NCBI GenBank assembly: GCA_030644725.1 | Contig: CP130629.1 | Coordinates: forward strand, 1,838,795-1,902,794 | Reading direction: 5' to 3' | Length of the DNA stretch: 64,000 nt | DNA from: Candidatus Electrothrix communis | GTDB lineage: Bacteria; Desulfobacterota; Desulfobulbia; Desulfobulbales; Desulfobulbaceae | Shown here: piece after piece, positions 4,991 through 63,826 of the stretch | Position numbering within the stretch: the first letter of the stretch is position 1 | How the letters are laid out: every line of letters begins with the position of its first letter | Program-made: the position numbers and the translations under genes | Notes under the pieces: generated by a model | Told to the model about the DNA's origin: nothing | The model's database searches: none | Seen by the model: only the letters and a program-made list of their open reading frames with translations

Positions 4991-7260
<2,270 letters not shown>

Positions 7261-9683: not shown

Positions 9684-9747
9684 GGCATAAAAAGCATCGG
9701 AAATCCGTGTGATTGGTTCAACTTAACGCTCCTTAAAAAAAAAAGGG

Positions 9748-11524
9748 TACCAACTTAAGCCGGGACAAAATGAACCTCGTCCCAAAAAATCATAACCTGA
9801 AATATCGTTTTTGATTGCCAGAAGTCTATGAAAAATAAGTTTATTGAAAAAATACTTTAACTGCTCGTAAAAAAATAGCATATTTCCGTTATGAAAGCAT
9901 TAACGGAAAAAATACGATCTATCGGTGGCAGAGTTTTTGCGGCTCTGGGGAAGTCAGACAAGCTTACCTACGAACAACTGGCAAAAGAAGCGAATACAAG
10001 CAAAAGTAGTGCGTTTCGACAAGTTAAAGGAATTCAAAGAAGAAATATCTATCCCGAATCTGTTTTGTGGGAACATGAAGAGGGGTATGAGTGGATTCGC
10101 AGGCATTTTTTGCCACCTTGTTGATATTCGGTGTGCAACATGGAATAGGAGCGGACACCCTTTCCGAATATTTCAAGGTGCTTCGACTCGACACGCATAT
10201 CGGGGTATCACCCACGCCTATACGAACCAGACTCTCTCAGCTTCAGGATGCAATTATCAGGTTTCAAAAAGAAGTTGAACAAAATTATAAAGATGTATTC
10301 AAAGAGGTGATCGGTGCGGCGGACGAAACATTTTTCTGCAATGCACTCATTCTGGTATTTATGGACCTGTCATCGGGTTATTTAATTTTAGAGGATGTCG
10401 CTGATGACAGAAGTTTTGATACCTGGTTTAAAATGTTGGAACCACGCCTTGAGGAGTTAGGTGTACACGTTCAGCTGATGGTATCTGATCGAGCTAAAGC
10501 GTTAATAAAGTTGGCTGTGGTCGGGCTTAAATGTGATCACAACGCTGATATTTTTCACGGCTTGCACGATATCAGTAAATGGATGGGCTCAACTTTAGGC
10601 CGCCGTAAGAGCACGACGAAAAGACAGTTGGATAAGTGCGAGTCAAGTCTTGAAAAAGCTGAAAAAGAGGAGCAAACAAAAAAATTGTGGCCTCCAAAGT
10701 GAAGCAGGTCGAAGAAGCACGGGCTCAAGACCAAAAAGCCACGCAAGATCTGGATAACTACCGTGGAACAATAAGGAAAATATCAAAAACGGTGCATCCG
10801 TTCAAACTGGACGACAATAAACCGCAAGATTCTGCAAACGTTGCAAAAGAGCTGCGAGAGCAAGCCAAGAATATTGAAACGCTGGCCTGCAAACAAGGTA
10901 TTAACGACAATACCGGCGTTATGAAGAAATTTAAGAATCAAATAAAAGAATTGGTCCCATCAATTGATTTTTGGTGGTTGTATGTGTTCACTAACCTGAT
11001 AGGGCTGGGAAAGAGGAGCAAGGAACTGCTGGATTGGGCAATGTACCATCTTTTGCCTACGGTGTATTGGTACAATCAGGCAAGAAAAACTAAGAACCCA
11101 ACCCTTCGAAAAGAATATGAAAAAGTATGGGAAAAAGCTTTGGTCGTCTTTCAGGCGCATGCCTTGACTGGAACATTTAGCGAGGATGAGATTTTCTTTT
11201 GGCAAAATTGGGCCGAGGAAATGGTGGGAAAATTTCATCGAGCTTCCTCTGCTGTCGAAGGACGTAACGGATTCTTGTCACAAATTCATCATAATAATAG
11301 AGGATTGAATTCAAATCGTCTCAAATCGCTTACCGTTATGCATAATTATTTCACAAAACGCTCAGATGGCAGTACAGCAGCGCAACGATTGTTTGGTGAA
11401 AAGCCACCGGACTTATTTGAATGGTTGCTGCACCAAGTGGGCGAGTTGCCCCTGCCTCGTAAGCCGAGAAAACATGTCAAGAGTAACCCTTTGAATTTAC
11501 TTTCTGTCCCGGCTTAAGTTGGTA
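9748..11524 (+). mobile_element. Complete insertion sequence with DUF6399-type transposase
   Basis: A 1777-bp element bounded by near-perfect terminal inverted repeats. The left end, 9748-9770, begins TACCAACTTAAGCCGGGACA. The right end, 11501-11524, is its complement, with one mismatch inside the inner few bases. The match may extend outward through GG. Both flanks are A-tracts (A10 at 9735-9744, A8 at 11528-11535), consistent with an A-rich target duplication of about 8 bp. The transposase stop codon lies inside the right repeat. The single gene occupies almost the whole element. Confidence 0.9.
9891..11517 (+). CDS. Transposase, DUF6399 type, in three frames joined by two -1 shifts
   Basis: Three overlapping frames (9891-10124, 10091-10702, 10687-11517) read as one protein of about 540 residues. 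Part 1 carries a small HTH-like N-terminus (LTYEQLAKEANTSKSSAFRQ). Part 2 has the family block GVQHGIGADTLSEYFK and acidic positions in GAADETFF and LMVSDRAKAL. Part 3 has VEGRNGFLSQIHH and ends inside the right terminal repeat. Each junction falls on a canonical slippery heptamer in the right phase: T_TTT_TTG at 10106-10112 and A_AAA_AAA at 10678-10684. Either shift could be programmed frameshifting, or both could be one-base homopolymer expansions (mutation or assembly error). The DUF6399 assignment is from memory of its conserved blocks. Confidence 0.8.
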
Positions 11525-60672: not shown

Positions 60673-60739
60673 GATGAAGCTCCTCTGTGTTTTTTTCAGG
60701 GGGGAGGCTGCGGCTGATATCTTGGATCTTGATAAATTA

Positions 60740-60846
60740 CCGGATAAGTACAACATACTTATATTCGTCAATTCTGTAAAATATATTATTTCATGGCTCC
60801 ATGAAGATGTGCATTTGGTCAGGATACGCAGAATCCAAACCCGGCT
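60740..60846 (+). repeat. About 105-bp dispersed repeat, copy 1
   Basis: From CCGGATAAGTACAAC to a GCAGAATCCAAACCCG end. The second copy, 63723-63826, has the same orientation with about 85-90% identity. It holds an inner ATAAGTA/TACTTAT inverted repeat. Its end resembles the T-arm of a tRNA read on the other strand. It takes up part of the 420-bp gap before hemerythrin, which is otherwise empty. Confidence 0.82.
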
Positions 60847-61093: not shown

Positions 61094-61504
61094 ATGTCTC
61101 TCTACCCGTGGAAAGATGACTATTCTGTTGGAGTTGCTCGTTTCGACAGACATCATAAAAAACTCTTTGATATTGCTAACGATCTTCATGAGATGATGAA
61201 ACTGGGAAAGGGGGAGGATGTAATTAAACCGCTCCTTATAGAATTGGTCGATTATACGAAGTATCACCTGGTGGAAGAAGAAAAAGTCCTGGTGTCTATA
61301 GGCTACTCAATGGTTGTCGGGCACAAGGCTGCTCACAAGGTTTTTACTCAAGAGCTTAATAACGCAATGGTTGAAGTGGAGAAAGGACGCACTCTTTTTG
61401 TTGTTATTAAAATTGCAAAAACCGTTATTGATTGGCTGATTGATCATATTTATGCGATTGACAAGAAATACTTGCCCGAGATGGCTGCTGCCGGAATAAG
61501 GTAA
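61094..61504 (+). CDS. Bacteriohemerythrin
   Basis: 136 residues, single four-helix domain with a complete di-iron ligand set: FDRHHKKLF (His, helix A), YHLVEEEKVL (His, Glu), HKAAH (two His) and WLIDHIYAID (His, Asp). Start MSLYPWKDDYSVGV is typical, with TGGAGG upstream. It binds O2 reversibly; single-domain forms serve oxygen supply or sensing in microaerophiles. That is consistent with life at oxic-anoxic interfaces. Confidence 0.94.
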   Translation: MSLYPWKDDYSVGVARFDRHHKKLFDIANDLHEMMKLGKGEDVIKPLLIELVDYTKYHLVEEEKVLVSIGYSMVVGHKAAHKVFTQELNNAMVEVEKGRTLFVVIKIAKTVIDWLIDHIYAIDKKYLPEMAAAGIR

Positions 61505-61810: not shown

Positions 61811-62800
61811 CTATTTATCATTCTGCTCGGTCGAATCAGATACGATTTCCCCTCCCAATATCTCGACAATGACCTCAACAGGTCGTTGCAGTTTCCGGGC
61901 AATCTGCTCCACATCCATTCCGCTCTCATGTAAAACCTGCACAGTTACTGAAAGCATTTTCATTTCTTCGGCCTGGGCCTTTTCCTTCTGTCGACGCTCT
62001 TCTTCCGCTTTCGCTTTCGCTGCCTCCGTTTTTGCTTCAGCCTCTTTTACCTTCTGCTCGGCACGTTCCTCCCCTTCAGCAAGGGCTGTTTTATAGACAT
62101 TCTGCTCAATCCGCTTGGAATCAAGGTACTTCTCGTAGCTCTTCTTTTCAGGCTCCGGCAGATTATCCACCCGCAATTTCTCTTTGGCTTCCCGAAGCCC
62201 CTTGGCCTGGAATTCTTCCTTGATTTCGTTATTTTTCAGGAAGTAAATCCACTCATCAAGGCTGTCTTTGGCAAAATTATCAAACTTATTGACCTTGAGC
62301 AGGTAATAGGTTGTGAAAATATCAGAAACTTTGGTGATAGGATAGGCTTTTTTCTGCGATGCGTTCAGCTCCAAAACGTCGTGGGTGTGCATCCCGACAA
62401 AATTGGTTGAACCGACATAGACGTAATCTTTGCCCAGTCCCAAATCGAAGTAAACGATATTGATGGAGAAAATCTTTTTGATATTTTCATAATCCTCGCC
62501 TTCAGCGATATGCTCTGTCAGCAGCTTGGCCTGGCCGAAGTTCATTCGGTGGAAAAAATCCCGTTCCCGCTCGTTCTGTACTTCGATCAGCATCAGGTCA
62601 TCCGCAGTGTTTTTGACGAGGATGTCGATCTTGTTAAACTTGCTGTCTTCCCGTTCCTTATTGCTTTCGCTTTCCAGGATTTCGCTGATTTTTATGTCTT
62701 CTTTGAGCAGCTCGGAAAGGAAGCCCTCAAGAATGCCGAAATTGGCTTTCTGGCGCAGGAGTCGCTTGATGGCCCAGTCGAATCGGATGTGTTTTTTCAT
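61811..62800 (-). CDS. Rpn family recombination-promoting nuclease
   Basis: 329 residues. The N-terminal PD-(D/E)XK nuclease domain (about 1-200) has Asp in NKIDILVKN and Glu-x-x in MLIEVQNERE, the core of the Rpn/YhgA transposase-like family. A long charged coiled coil (about 240-290, rich in E, K and A) precedes a C-terminal helical piece with VEQIARKLQRPVEVI. Rpn proteins are Ca/Mg-dependent DNA nucleases. The ATG overlaps the HepT stop (TAATG), so this copy appears translationally coupled to a toxin-antitoxin pair, while a decayed copy lies at 53664. Confidence 0.9.
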   Translation of the reverse strand: MKKHIRFDWAIKRLLRQKANFGILEGFLSELLKEDIKISEILESESNKEREDSKFNKIDILVKNTADDLMLIEVQNERERDFFHRMNFGQAKLLTEHIAEGEDYENIKKIFSINIVYFDLGLGKDYVYVGSTNFVGMHTHDVLELNASQKKAYPITKVSDIFTTYYLLKVNKFDNFAKDSLDEWIYFLKNNEIKEEFQAKGLREAKEKLRVDNLPEPEKKSYEKYLDSKRIEQNVYKTALAEGEERAEQKVKEAEAKTEAAKAKAEEERRQKEKAQAEEMKMLSVTVQVLHESGMDVEQIARKLQRPVEVIVEILGGEIVSDSTEQNDK

Positions 62801-63141
62801 TACTTTTCTTTTATTGATTTCAGCAAGGAAAGTAGCGCAGGAATTTCATCACAGATGATACTCCACAGGATATCGTTATCAATTCCCAAATACCCATGAA
62901 TCACTCGGTTTCGGGTGGCAATAATCATTCGCCAAGGTATTTCCGGATGATCAGCACGAATTTCAGCAGGTATATGCGTCGCCGCTTCTCCGATTAACTC
63001 TATATTGCGTAAGGTCGCATCGTAATTCAATCCACTTTCAACGAAGCTATCCTGGTCCAGCCCATCGGTGTACACAAGAACTTTTTGAGAAAAATCGATC
63101 ATGTCATCAATATAAAAACCGCCATTCACGGTCAGAAGCAT
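62800..63141 (-). CDS. hepT: HepT-like HEPN toxin
   Basis: 113 residues, all-helical, with the HEPN RNase motif RNRVIHGY (Rx4HxY) at about 77-84 and ESGLNYDATLRNIELIGEAA, both typical of HepT (DUF86). HepT is an RNA-cleaving toxin that its MntA partner silences by adenylylating the Tyr of this motif. Its start overlaps the mntA stop by one base (TAATG). Confidence 0.92.
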   Translation of the reverse strand: MLLTVNGGFYIDDMIDFSQKVLVYTDGLDQDSFVESGLNYDATLRNIELIGEAATHIPAEIRADHPEIPWRMIIATRNRVIHGYLGIDNDILWSIICDEIPALLSLLKSIKEK

Positions 63142-63431
63142 TAGACATAAACCCCCTCCTTTTCAACATAAGGACGAAGCTCAGGCCTGAGTGCTTTTTC
63201 CGTCACCAAATCCACTGTGCATTCAAGTAAATCTTCCAGATAAAATAAAAGTCCGAAATATCGCTTCGAATTCGTCGGCCCATCAAAAGCGACCAAAATA
63301 TCCACATCACTGGCATCCGTCGCTGTATCACGGACAGTTGAGCCGAACAGCAGCAGCTTGCTCACGCCGAAGCGTTTTCTGAGCTCTTGTTTGCATTGAG
63401 TGAGTAGCTTGATAGCGTGTTGGCGTTTCAT
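63141..63431 (-). CDS. mntA: MntA-like nucleotidyltransferase antitoxin
   Basis: 96 residues with the minimal nucleotidyltransferase motif LFGSTVRDTATDASDVDILV (GSx10DxD), then a helical end PELRPYVEKEGVYV. It is the type VII antitoxin that modifies HepT with AMP. The start lies 3 bp after the preceding small gene's stop. Confidence 0.93.
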   Translation of the reverse strand: MKRQHAIKLLTQCKQELRKRFGVSKLLLFGSTVRDTATDASDVDILVAFDGPTNSKRYFGLLFYLEDLLECTVDLVTEKALRPELRPYVEKEGVYV

Positions 63432-63434
63432 AGT

Positions 63435-63641
63435 TTAGTCGTCTTTTTTCTCTTCACAGCTTTCTATCGCGATATCGAGTGTGTCGTTATTAAAATCCTT
63501 TATGCCGGAAATTGCTATACCGTCATGTGACAGCGTATCAATTATACTGTCTTCCAATCCGCCATCAACGGCCCAAGTATAAAATCGTTGTGCCGCTTCA
63601 TCGGAATTGAATCCTACAAATGTAAGGGTTACTTTCTTCAC
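63435..63641 (-). CDS. Hypothetical 68-aa protein upstream of mntA
   Basis: A small acidic protein (about a fifth Asp/Glu) with an alternating strand-helix-strand start (KVTLTFVGFNSDEAAQRFYTW) and an EEKKDD tail. I know no family. Its stop is 3 bp before mntA, so it is part of the same transcript and would be the first gene. AAGGAAAA lies upstream. Low-complexity acidic proteins of this size can be antitoxin-like or DNA mimics, but nothing here shows it. Confidence 0.6.
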   Translation of the reverse strand: MKKVTLTFVGFNSDEAAQRFYTWAVDGGLEDSIIDTLSHDGIAISGIKDFNNDTLDIAIESCEEKKDD

Positions 63642-63722
63642 AATTTTTTCCTTAATTGAATTTGAGGGGTGCAGGTGAACAGCTACGCGTCAGCGGCTGA
63701 CACTTTATATTTTTGTAAACTC

Positions 63723-63826
63723 CCGAATAAGTACAACATACTTGTATTCGTCAATTCTGTAAAATATATTATTTCATGGCTACATGAAGATATGAATTTG
63801 GGCAGGATAAACAGGATTCGAACCCG
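63723..63826 (+). repeat. About 105-bp dispersed repeat, copy 2
   Basis: The counterpart of 60740-60846, ending in GGATTCGAACCCGCGACCCC, a T-arm-like sequence on the minus strand. The two copies bracket the hemerythrin and mntA-hepT-Rpn genes. From 63866 to the window end I see no gene. Confidence 0.82.

What the first reader, a model, noticed from the sequence alone, without database searches (positions are those of the whole stretch)
61811..63641. Four-gene unit: small acidic protein, MntA, HepT and Rpn nuclease, with start-stop overlaps
mntA-hepT and hepT-rpn each overlap by one base (TAATG), and the leading small gene ends 3 bp before mntA. A type VII toxin-antitoxin pair coupled to a PD-(D/E)XK Rpn nuclease suggests joint function, for example a layered defence in which RNA and DNA are both cut. 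Alternatively Rpn, a mobile-like nuclease, hitchhikes on addiction.
Basis: partly seen in the sequence, partly recalled or inferred. Interest (0 to 1): 0.65.

Follow-up and report, generated by a model that had tools for sequence, protein, structure and literature searches.

The report
Toxin pair fused to nuclease gene
A bacterial toxin-antitoxin pair sits directly in front of a DNA-cutting nuclease gene in a small, fast-rearranging genome island; the arrangement is real but found only in close relatives, so the two systems are more likely neighbours than one machine.

Summary
The four genes, their minus-strand order and close junctions are real. mntA-hepT is a type VII-like pair with both signature motifs; the fourth gene is a PDDEXK_2/Rpn nuclease. 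But the partnership is local. In 57 genomes (this one and relatives), 2 of 63 hepT matches lie within 1 kb of an Rpn, both at this locus. None of the 80 closest hepT loci fetched from other genomes has an Rpn in its flanks. Of 8 genomes of the genus, 2 have mntA-hepT-rpn. G003 has small and rpn 20 bp apart, with 27 bp where this genome has 641. Others have a YhcG nuclease before rpn, or remnants. Here hepT is out of frame with its conserved start, so the mntA/hepT TAATG junction is an alternative start. In G005 the rpn directly behind hepT is frameshifted. Best reading: two separate nuclease-toxin systems, co-expressed in a rearranging defence/TA island near nifS. Some relatives of this mntA-hepT abut restriction-modification genes, so a joint role is not excluded.

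The parts
63435..63641 (-). small acidic 68-aa gene (GTG start), no known family; restricted to the genus
   Evidence: ORF; no Pfam, NCBIfam, PADLOC or PHROGs family; found in 4 of 57 genomes; G000 vs G003 4 synonymous and 1 non-synonymous codon changes in the first 66 codons, interrupted in G001 and G004
63432..63470 (-). 3' tail of small that also forms the leader of mntA; in G005, G006 and G002 this tail is fused to the first ~96 nt of rpn instead of to small
63141..63431 (-). mntA: minimal nucleotidyltransferase antitoxin with GSX10DXD
   Evidence: Pfam NTP_transf_2 1.2e-16; NCBIfam MntA 4.8e-12, below cut-off; PADLOC PDC-S09 3.5e-28; motif read from the translation, defined in PMC7641770 (passages)
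62800..63141 (-). hepT: HEPN RNase toxin with RX4HXY; ORF starts at an alternative ATG (TAATG)
   Evidence: Pfam HepT-like 5.6e-26; motif RNRVIHGY read; start analysis
63114..63118 (.). homopolymer run (five A on +, five T in the gene) at which hepT is shifted out of the frame of its conserved start (ATG at 63146-63148)
61811..62800 (-). rpn: PD-(D/E)XK nuclease of the Rpn / PDDEXK_2 family with a coiled-coil and helix-turn-helix-like C-terminal part
   Evidence: Pfam PDDEXK_2 2e-18, NCBIfam TIGR01784 above cut-off, D59, E73, Q75 invariant in 47 aligned sequences; length of the coil differs between orthologues by 7 and 14 aa
62705..62800 (-). first 96 nt of rpn; copies of this piece recur alone at the same locus in G005, G006 (three) and G002
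62801..63441 (-). 641 bp carrying mntA-hepT; G003 has 27 bp in its place between homologous small and rpn
63693..63826 (.). 134-bp direct repeat, copy upstream of small (second copy 60710-60843)

Best explanation
Two separate nuclease-toxin systems stand in tandem in a genus-specific, fast-rearranging defence/toxin-antitoxin island near nifS. MntA (AMP-transferring antitoxin) and HepT (HEPN RNase) form a self-contained type VII-like pair; MntA would disarm HepT by adding AMPs to the tyrosine of RX4HXY. Rpn is a DNA endonuclease that would be restrained by its own C-terminal domain, as in E. coli RpnL/RpnS, and needs no MntA. The start-stop overlap puts rpn under the promoter and translation of the pair, so they are probably co-expressed, and the pair may help keep the island in the population (addiction). 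Shown: anatomy, families, motifs, rarity of the adjacency, partner turnover and loss in the genus. Inferred: AMP transfer, RNase and DNase activity, co-expression, addiction.
For: The pair is almost always complete without Rpn: mntA adjoins hepT in 79 of the 80 loci kept from 314 confirmed (the 80th starts 31 bp after a contig end), and no Rpn lies in their flanks by tblastn or by an HMM built from 49 Rpn ORFs. Rpn is almost always without the pair: 2 of 126 PF12784 matches in 57 genomes are near hepT, both at this locus, and of 20 Rpn copies here only this one is so coupled. At the same island G003 has small and rpn 20 bp apart with no mntA-hepT; G006 has rpn5'-mntA, no hepT, and a YhcG nuclease overlapping rpn by ATGA; G001 has small, a YhcG part and an rpn part joined out of frame; G007 has rpn split by an ISL3 transposase. 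rpn keeps D59/E73/Q75 and stays more than 90% identical in protein between G000 and G003, which lacks the pair. mntA of G005 is more alike to G006 (80% of 45 fourfold sites) than nifS is (48% of 146), while G000-G006 agree (75% and 72%), pointing to exchange of the module inside the genus. In G005 the rpn directly behind hepT is frameshifted and an intact rpn follows.
Against: The hepT/rpn overlap is kept in both genomes that have it although the stop differs (TAA|TG here, ATGA in G005), which could mean selection on coupling. mntA persists in 4 of 8 genomes of the genus beside rpn or its 5' end, so the association is old there. Relatives of this mntA-hepT abut restriction-modification genes, so pairing with DNA-cutting systems is not random. 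One distant genome has a PF08780/MNT pair convergent with an Rpn (L218). The RpnS-type internal start is not conserved (ATG in G000, G003, G005, not in G006).
Confidence: 0.62

Rival explanations
1. Joint layered defence: HepT (RNA) and Rpn (DNA) act in one response, with the pair as a fuse that fires when Rpn is blocked or overwhelmed, as proposed for HEPN domains linked to restriction-modification systems.
For: One-base hepT/rpn overlap, kept in G000 and G005 with different stops. Of 10 flanking genes that I picked and scanned beside relatives of this mntA-hepT, 6 are restriction-modification or candidate defence genes: type III methylase (L109, L082), type III restriction enzyme (L115), type I methylase (L127), type IIG (L093, PADLOC only), YhcG N-terminal part (L099). 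Coupling of immunity and suicide genes is an existing hypothesis (PMC3506569 and PMC3710099, passages).
Against: Adjacency confined to one locus in one genus; complete triple in 2 of 8 genomes, each with one damaged member; rpn persists without the pair.
Confidence: 0.15
2. Hitchhiking: mntA-hepT is an addiction module and Rpn, plus whatever else is in the island, is simply kept by it.
For: Changing cargo beside the same mntA (YhcG and rpn in G006, rpn alone in G005, neither intact in G002). Exchange of mntA inside the genus.
Against: rpn is kept where mntA-hepT is absent (G003; G007, whose rpn is split); in G006 and G002 mntA is kept without hepT, the reverse of addiction.
Confidence: 0.15
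3. Relic: the unit is decaying, with hepT out of frame and the overlaps by-products of deletions and duplications, and nothing is selected now. A single-base assembly error in the homopolymer is a version of this.
For: hepT frame shift at a homopolymer; rpn 5' pieces, split small genes, frameshifted rpn and chimeric junctions around the genus.
Against: rpn and small show mostly silent change (rpn 94% protein identity against 80% of 89 fourfold sites; small 4 synonymous to 1 non-synonymous); hepT reads on intact from the second ATG.
Confidence: 0.08

Closest known systems
HepT/MntA type VII toxin-antitoxin (Shewanella oneidensis SO_3166/SO_3165; PMC7641770, passages seen)
   Same: Antitoxin-first gene order, PF01909/PF01934 domains, GSX10DXD in MntA, RX4HXY in HepT
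   Different: Below the NCBIfam equivalog cut-offs; hepT start shifted here; an extra small gene in front and rpn behind
Rpn / RpnL-RpnS genes-within-genes antiphage proteins of E. coli (PMC10327210; abstract, Results part 1 of 2, Discussion read)
   Same: Rpn nuclease family (NCBIfam TIGR01784 above cut-off), many copies per genome, coil of varying length before a C-terminal helical domain, tandem arrays and remnants
   Different: Pfam PDDEXK_2 rather than Transposase_31, the family named for E. coli in the abstract of PMC5350276 (listing); length varies by 7 aa, not 4, in this orthologue group; internal start not conserved
HEPN domains embedded in restriction-modification operons (PMC3710099, PMC3506569; passages seen)
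   Same: RNase toxin gene next to DNA-cutting enzyme genes, as in some relatives of this pair
   Different: Here the DNase is an Rpn and no methylase was recognised among the ten island proteins scanned
YhcG (DUF1016) nucleases, PADLOC candidate PDC-S02
   Same: Sits in the same slot in front of rpn, with an ATGA overlap, in G006
   Different: Not present in this window's unit; an alternative occupant

Membership tests
Type VII HepT/MntA toxin-antitoxin | HEPN protein of PF01934 next to MNT protein of PF01909 | tested here: met
   5.6e-26 and 1.2e-16, both above Pfam cut-offs; genes abut
Type VII HepT/MntA toxin-antitoxin | RX4HXY in HepT and GSX10DXD in MntA | tested here: met
   RNRVIHGY and GSTVRDTATDASDVD in the translations; 79 of 80 and 79 of 79 in homologous loci
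Type VII HepT/MntA toxin-antitoxin | NCBIfam equivalog score | tested here: not met
   33.3 and 45.7 bits against a cut-off of 60: the broader HEPN/MNT kind, not the named equivalogs
Type VII HepT/MntA toxin-antitoxin | hepT readable from the conserved start | tested here: not met
   the frame from ATG 63148 stops after 13 codons; the ORF uses ATG 63141
Type VII HepT/MntA toxin-antitoxin | AMP transfer to HepT and neutralised RNase toxicity | not testable with these tools
   needs biochemistry
Rpn nuclease | PD-(D/E)XK domain of the Rpn family with catalytic residues | tested here: met
   PDDEXK_2 2e-18; TIGR01784 59.3 bits, cut-off 52.1; D59, E73, Q75 invariant in 47 sequences
RpnL/RpnS intragenic toxin-antitoxin | internal start giving a separate C-terminal antitoxin | tested here: inconclusive
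   in-frame ATG in G000, G003 and G005 but not G006 at the same place; other starts and expression not tested
RpnL/RpnS intragenic toxin-antitoxin | solved-structure match of the C-terminal domain | tested here: inconclusive
   model pLDDT 80.8, no PDB match with E <= 0.001
Conserved mntA-hepT-rpn system | adjacency kept across genera | tested here: not met
   0 of 80 loci from other genomes; 2 of 63 hepT matches in 57 genomes, one locus

The most novel reading that the evidence does not exclude
mntA-hepT is a portable fuse that docks by stop-start overlap in front of different DNA-cutting enzymes (type I, III and IIG restriction-modification genes elsewhere, Rpn here), so that MntA's AMP transfer or the shared translation ties release of HepT to the state of that nuclease; in this genus the slot in front of rpn is exchanged between mntA-hepT and YhcG.
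Probability: 0.08. Interest if true: 0.7.

Novelty: new variant of a known kind. Interest (0 to 1): 0.3.

Why it matters
If the coupling were functional it would tie an RNase toxin switch to a DNA nuclease without a methylase, a simple form of the proposed link between immunity and suicide genes. As it stands it mainly shows how fast such islands trade parts: one locus in eight related genomes holds the same few blocks (small gene, mntA, hepT, rpn, YhcG) in different orders, including empty-site and remnant states that let the joining be followed step by step. It is also a caution: a tidy one-base overlap here comes from a shifted reading frame, not from a conserved design.

Tried and rejected
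Cassette insertion with duplication of the rpn 5' end (as with elements that restore their target gene): suggested by rpn 5' pieces ending near nt 95-97 in front of mntA in G005, G006 and G002. Rejected as first choice because the three share one junction (one event, then inherited or exchanged), the other pieces end elsewhere (nt 80, nt 62), and tandem duplication followed by deletion, which PMC10327210 describes for rpn arrays, explains them.

Viral spread: no relative of Rpn, HepT or small in viral contigs with the single-protein queries used; small has no match in phages or plasmids. Distant HepT relatives (under 60% identity) are common on plasmids (1433 records); I did not look at their neighbours.

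Structure: small folded without an alignment gave pLDDT 57 and was not searched further; Rpn gave no significant PDB match, and its sequence and that of HepT found no solved relative at the limits used.

Promoter and terminator scans found about as many sites as shuffles; no tRNA gene near, although tRNA-like stretches caught my eye.

A second rpn group with a Phd/YafQ-like pair 112-119 bp upstream (G001, G003, G004) scores below Pfam cut-offs and is not coupled. Three of 84 rpn loci (several overlapping) have another MNT gene in the flanks without coupling (L227, L236, L218).

Searches of the held papers for HepT, MntA and Rpn gave no paper that joins Rpn with the other two as genes; a search with toxin-antitoxin, an Rpn annotation phrase and operon listed none either among the 10 shown. 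Subscription papers are not held.

Organism name: not determined by any search; I guessed a lineage early and dropped it (one paper search on that guess gave nothing used).

Full report
OBSERVATION. The four genes lie on the minus strand as described: small 63641-63435, mntA 63431-63141, hepT 63141-62800, rpn 62800-61811; the two TAATG junctions and the 3-bp gap are there. Families: MNT nucleotidyltransferase, HepT-like, PDDEXK_2/Rpn; small matches nothing in Pfam, NCBIfam, PADLOC or PHROGs. MntA also matches the PADLOC candidate PDC-S09 at 3.5e-28.

A SHIFTED START. In 79 loci with both genes, hepT starts 8 nt inside mntA in 71 (start nearest to the mntA stop taken), and the protein begins MSxxxxREWRFY in most of those printed. 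Here the ATG at that spacing (63148) reads MSNASDREWRFLY and then stops; the open frame starts at 63141 as MLLTVNGG and joins the conserved FYIDD. The change sits at a run of five A on the + strand (63114-63118). It may be real, may slip, or may be an assembly error; no read data are at hand. So the one-base overlap between mntA and hepT is not an ancestral design. The hepT/rpn junction is also seen in G005, there with the stop as ATGA.

HOW COMMON IS THE PARTNERSHIP. mntA adjoins hepT in 79 of 80; the 80th begins near a contig end. An HMM from 49 Rpn ORFs of the genus found no Rpn in these 80 loci (flanks up to 4 kb, many cut by contig ends) nor in 28 further loci from relatives (flanks about 1.5 kb). 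In 57 genomes (own and relatives), 63 hepT matches and 126 PF12784 matches meet within 1 kb twice, in G000 and G005, at this locus. PF12784 occurs in 12 of 57 genomes and 4 of 33 genera at E <= 1e-10, with 7-24 copies in each genome of this genus. Close relatives of this Rpn (E <= 1e-40) are in 4 of 297 genomes drawn from the phylum, own included. With HMMs for HepT and MntA, 84 rpn loci (several overlapping) show hepT only at this locus; MNT genes appear also in L227 and L236 (orthologous, convergent) and in L218, a distant genome, with a PF08780 partner.

WHAT THE GENUS SHOWS. Eight genomes were compared at the island near nifS (G001, G002, G004 and G006 are in many contigs; in G001 and G006 nifS is on another contig). 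G000: small-mntA-hepT-rpn. G003: small, 20 bp, rpn; 27 bp stand where G000 has 641 bp. G004: small interrupted, then rpn begins and the contig ends; another contig starts with a damaged rpn piece and is probably the continuation. G005: rpn nt 1-95, mntA-hepT, a frameshifted rpn, a second intact rpn overlapping it by ATGA. G006: rpn piece, mntA, rpn piece (80 bp), YhcG, rpn; further mntA and rpn scraps behind. G002: rpn nt 1-97, mntA whose frame runs on to 171 aa, no hepT found. G001: small interrupted, YhcG residues 25-196, then rpn from nt 332, out of frame. G007: rpn split by an ISL3 transposase, with a weak Gp49-like gene below cut-off and its neighbour nearby. Copies of the rpn 5' end above 90% identity were found only at this locus in 59 genomes of the family, if the two G004 contigs adjoin.

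HOW IT GOT THERE. In G005, G006 and G002 the rpn 5' piece joins the same point of the small tail, the tail that leads into mntA: one event, then inherited or passed on. mntA has 80% identity at 45 fourfold sites between G005 and G006 and 78% between G000 and G005, against 48% of 146 and 57% of 148 in nifS; G000-G006 are equal (75% of 44, 72% of 155). I read this as exchange of the module inside the genus, followed by tandem duplication and deletion, a mode reported for rpn arrays (PMC10327210, Results part 1). Whether the G003 state is ancestral or a loss cannot be decided from eight genomes.

MECHANISM. Motifs place HepT and MntA with the class in which MntA adds AMPs to a HepT tyrosine (PMC7641770, passages); that activity is inferred here. 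Rpn keeps its catalytic residues. E. coli Rpn proteins are DNases held by their own C-terminal product (PMC10327210); the C-terminal part here is similar in kind (coil of varying length, then a helical end), but the internal ATG is missing in G006 and the coil varies by 7 aa rather than 4 in this group. So each system plausibly carries its own restraint, and the shared operon gives co-expression. Restriction-modification genes abut relatives of this mntA-hepT: 20 loci in all (17 of 78 examined, and three more among the 14 of 80) have a downstream ORF within -10 to +20 bp, and 9 of 76 an upstream one, many of them ORFs that may not be genes; 6 of the 10 I chose to scan are restriction-modification or candidate defence genes. 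That keeps a joint role possible.

SMALL GENE. In 4 of 57 genomes, one genus. Four synonymous and one other codon change between G000 and G003 over 66 codons suggest a real protein, but it is interrupted in G001 and G004 and replaced in three genomes, so it is dispensable. Its structure model is unreliable.

VERDICT. A real, tightly packed unit of known parts, rare and unstable; most likely two systems sharing an island. Interest 0.3.

Noticed in passing
window 60710-60843 and 63693-63826: 134-bp direct repeat (84% identity) on both sides of the unit plus the hemerythrin-like gene; one copy each in G003 and G004 upstream of small, no other match in 8 genomes at E <= 1e-5.
   Followed up: partly
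G006:C52 (L164:4484-5611 -): YhcG (DUF1016 N-terminal + PDDEXK) gene, PADLOC candidate PDC-S02, overlaps rpn by ATGA in the slot that mntA-hepT holds here.
   Followed up: partly
L155, L010, L009, L160, L152, L146 (rpn C-termini): Other Rpn groups of the genus carry GLEK/EGLKEGK-type four-residue repeats in differing numbers before the C-terminal helix, like the repeats reported for RpnS (PMC10327210).
   Followed up: no
L137 about 9690-9785 and L136 about 6505-6676: Small genes of G004 and G001 are interrupted by short inserts whose ends look like inverted repeats, possibly miniature transposons.
   Followed up: no
L144, L148, L154: A second rpn group has a Phd/YafQ-like pair (below Pfam cut-offs) 112-119 bp upstream in three genomes.
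   Followed up: partly
L218:455-2250: PF08780 + MNT pair, convergent with an Rpn, in a genome of another family of the phylum.
   Followed up: partly
window 61094-61504: 136-aa ORF that looks like a hemerythrin-type protein by eye, between rpn and the lipoprotein-like gene; G003 has none between its rpn and that gene (family not searched).
   Followed up: no
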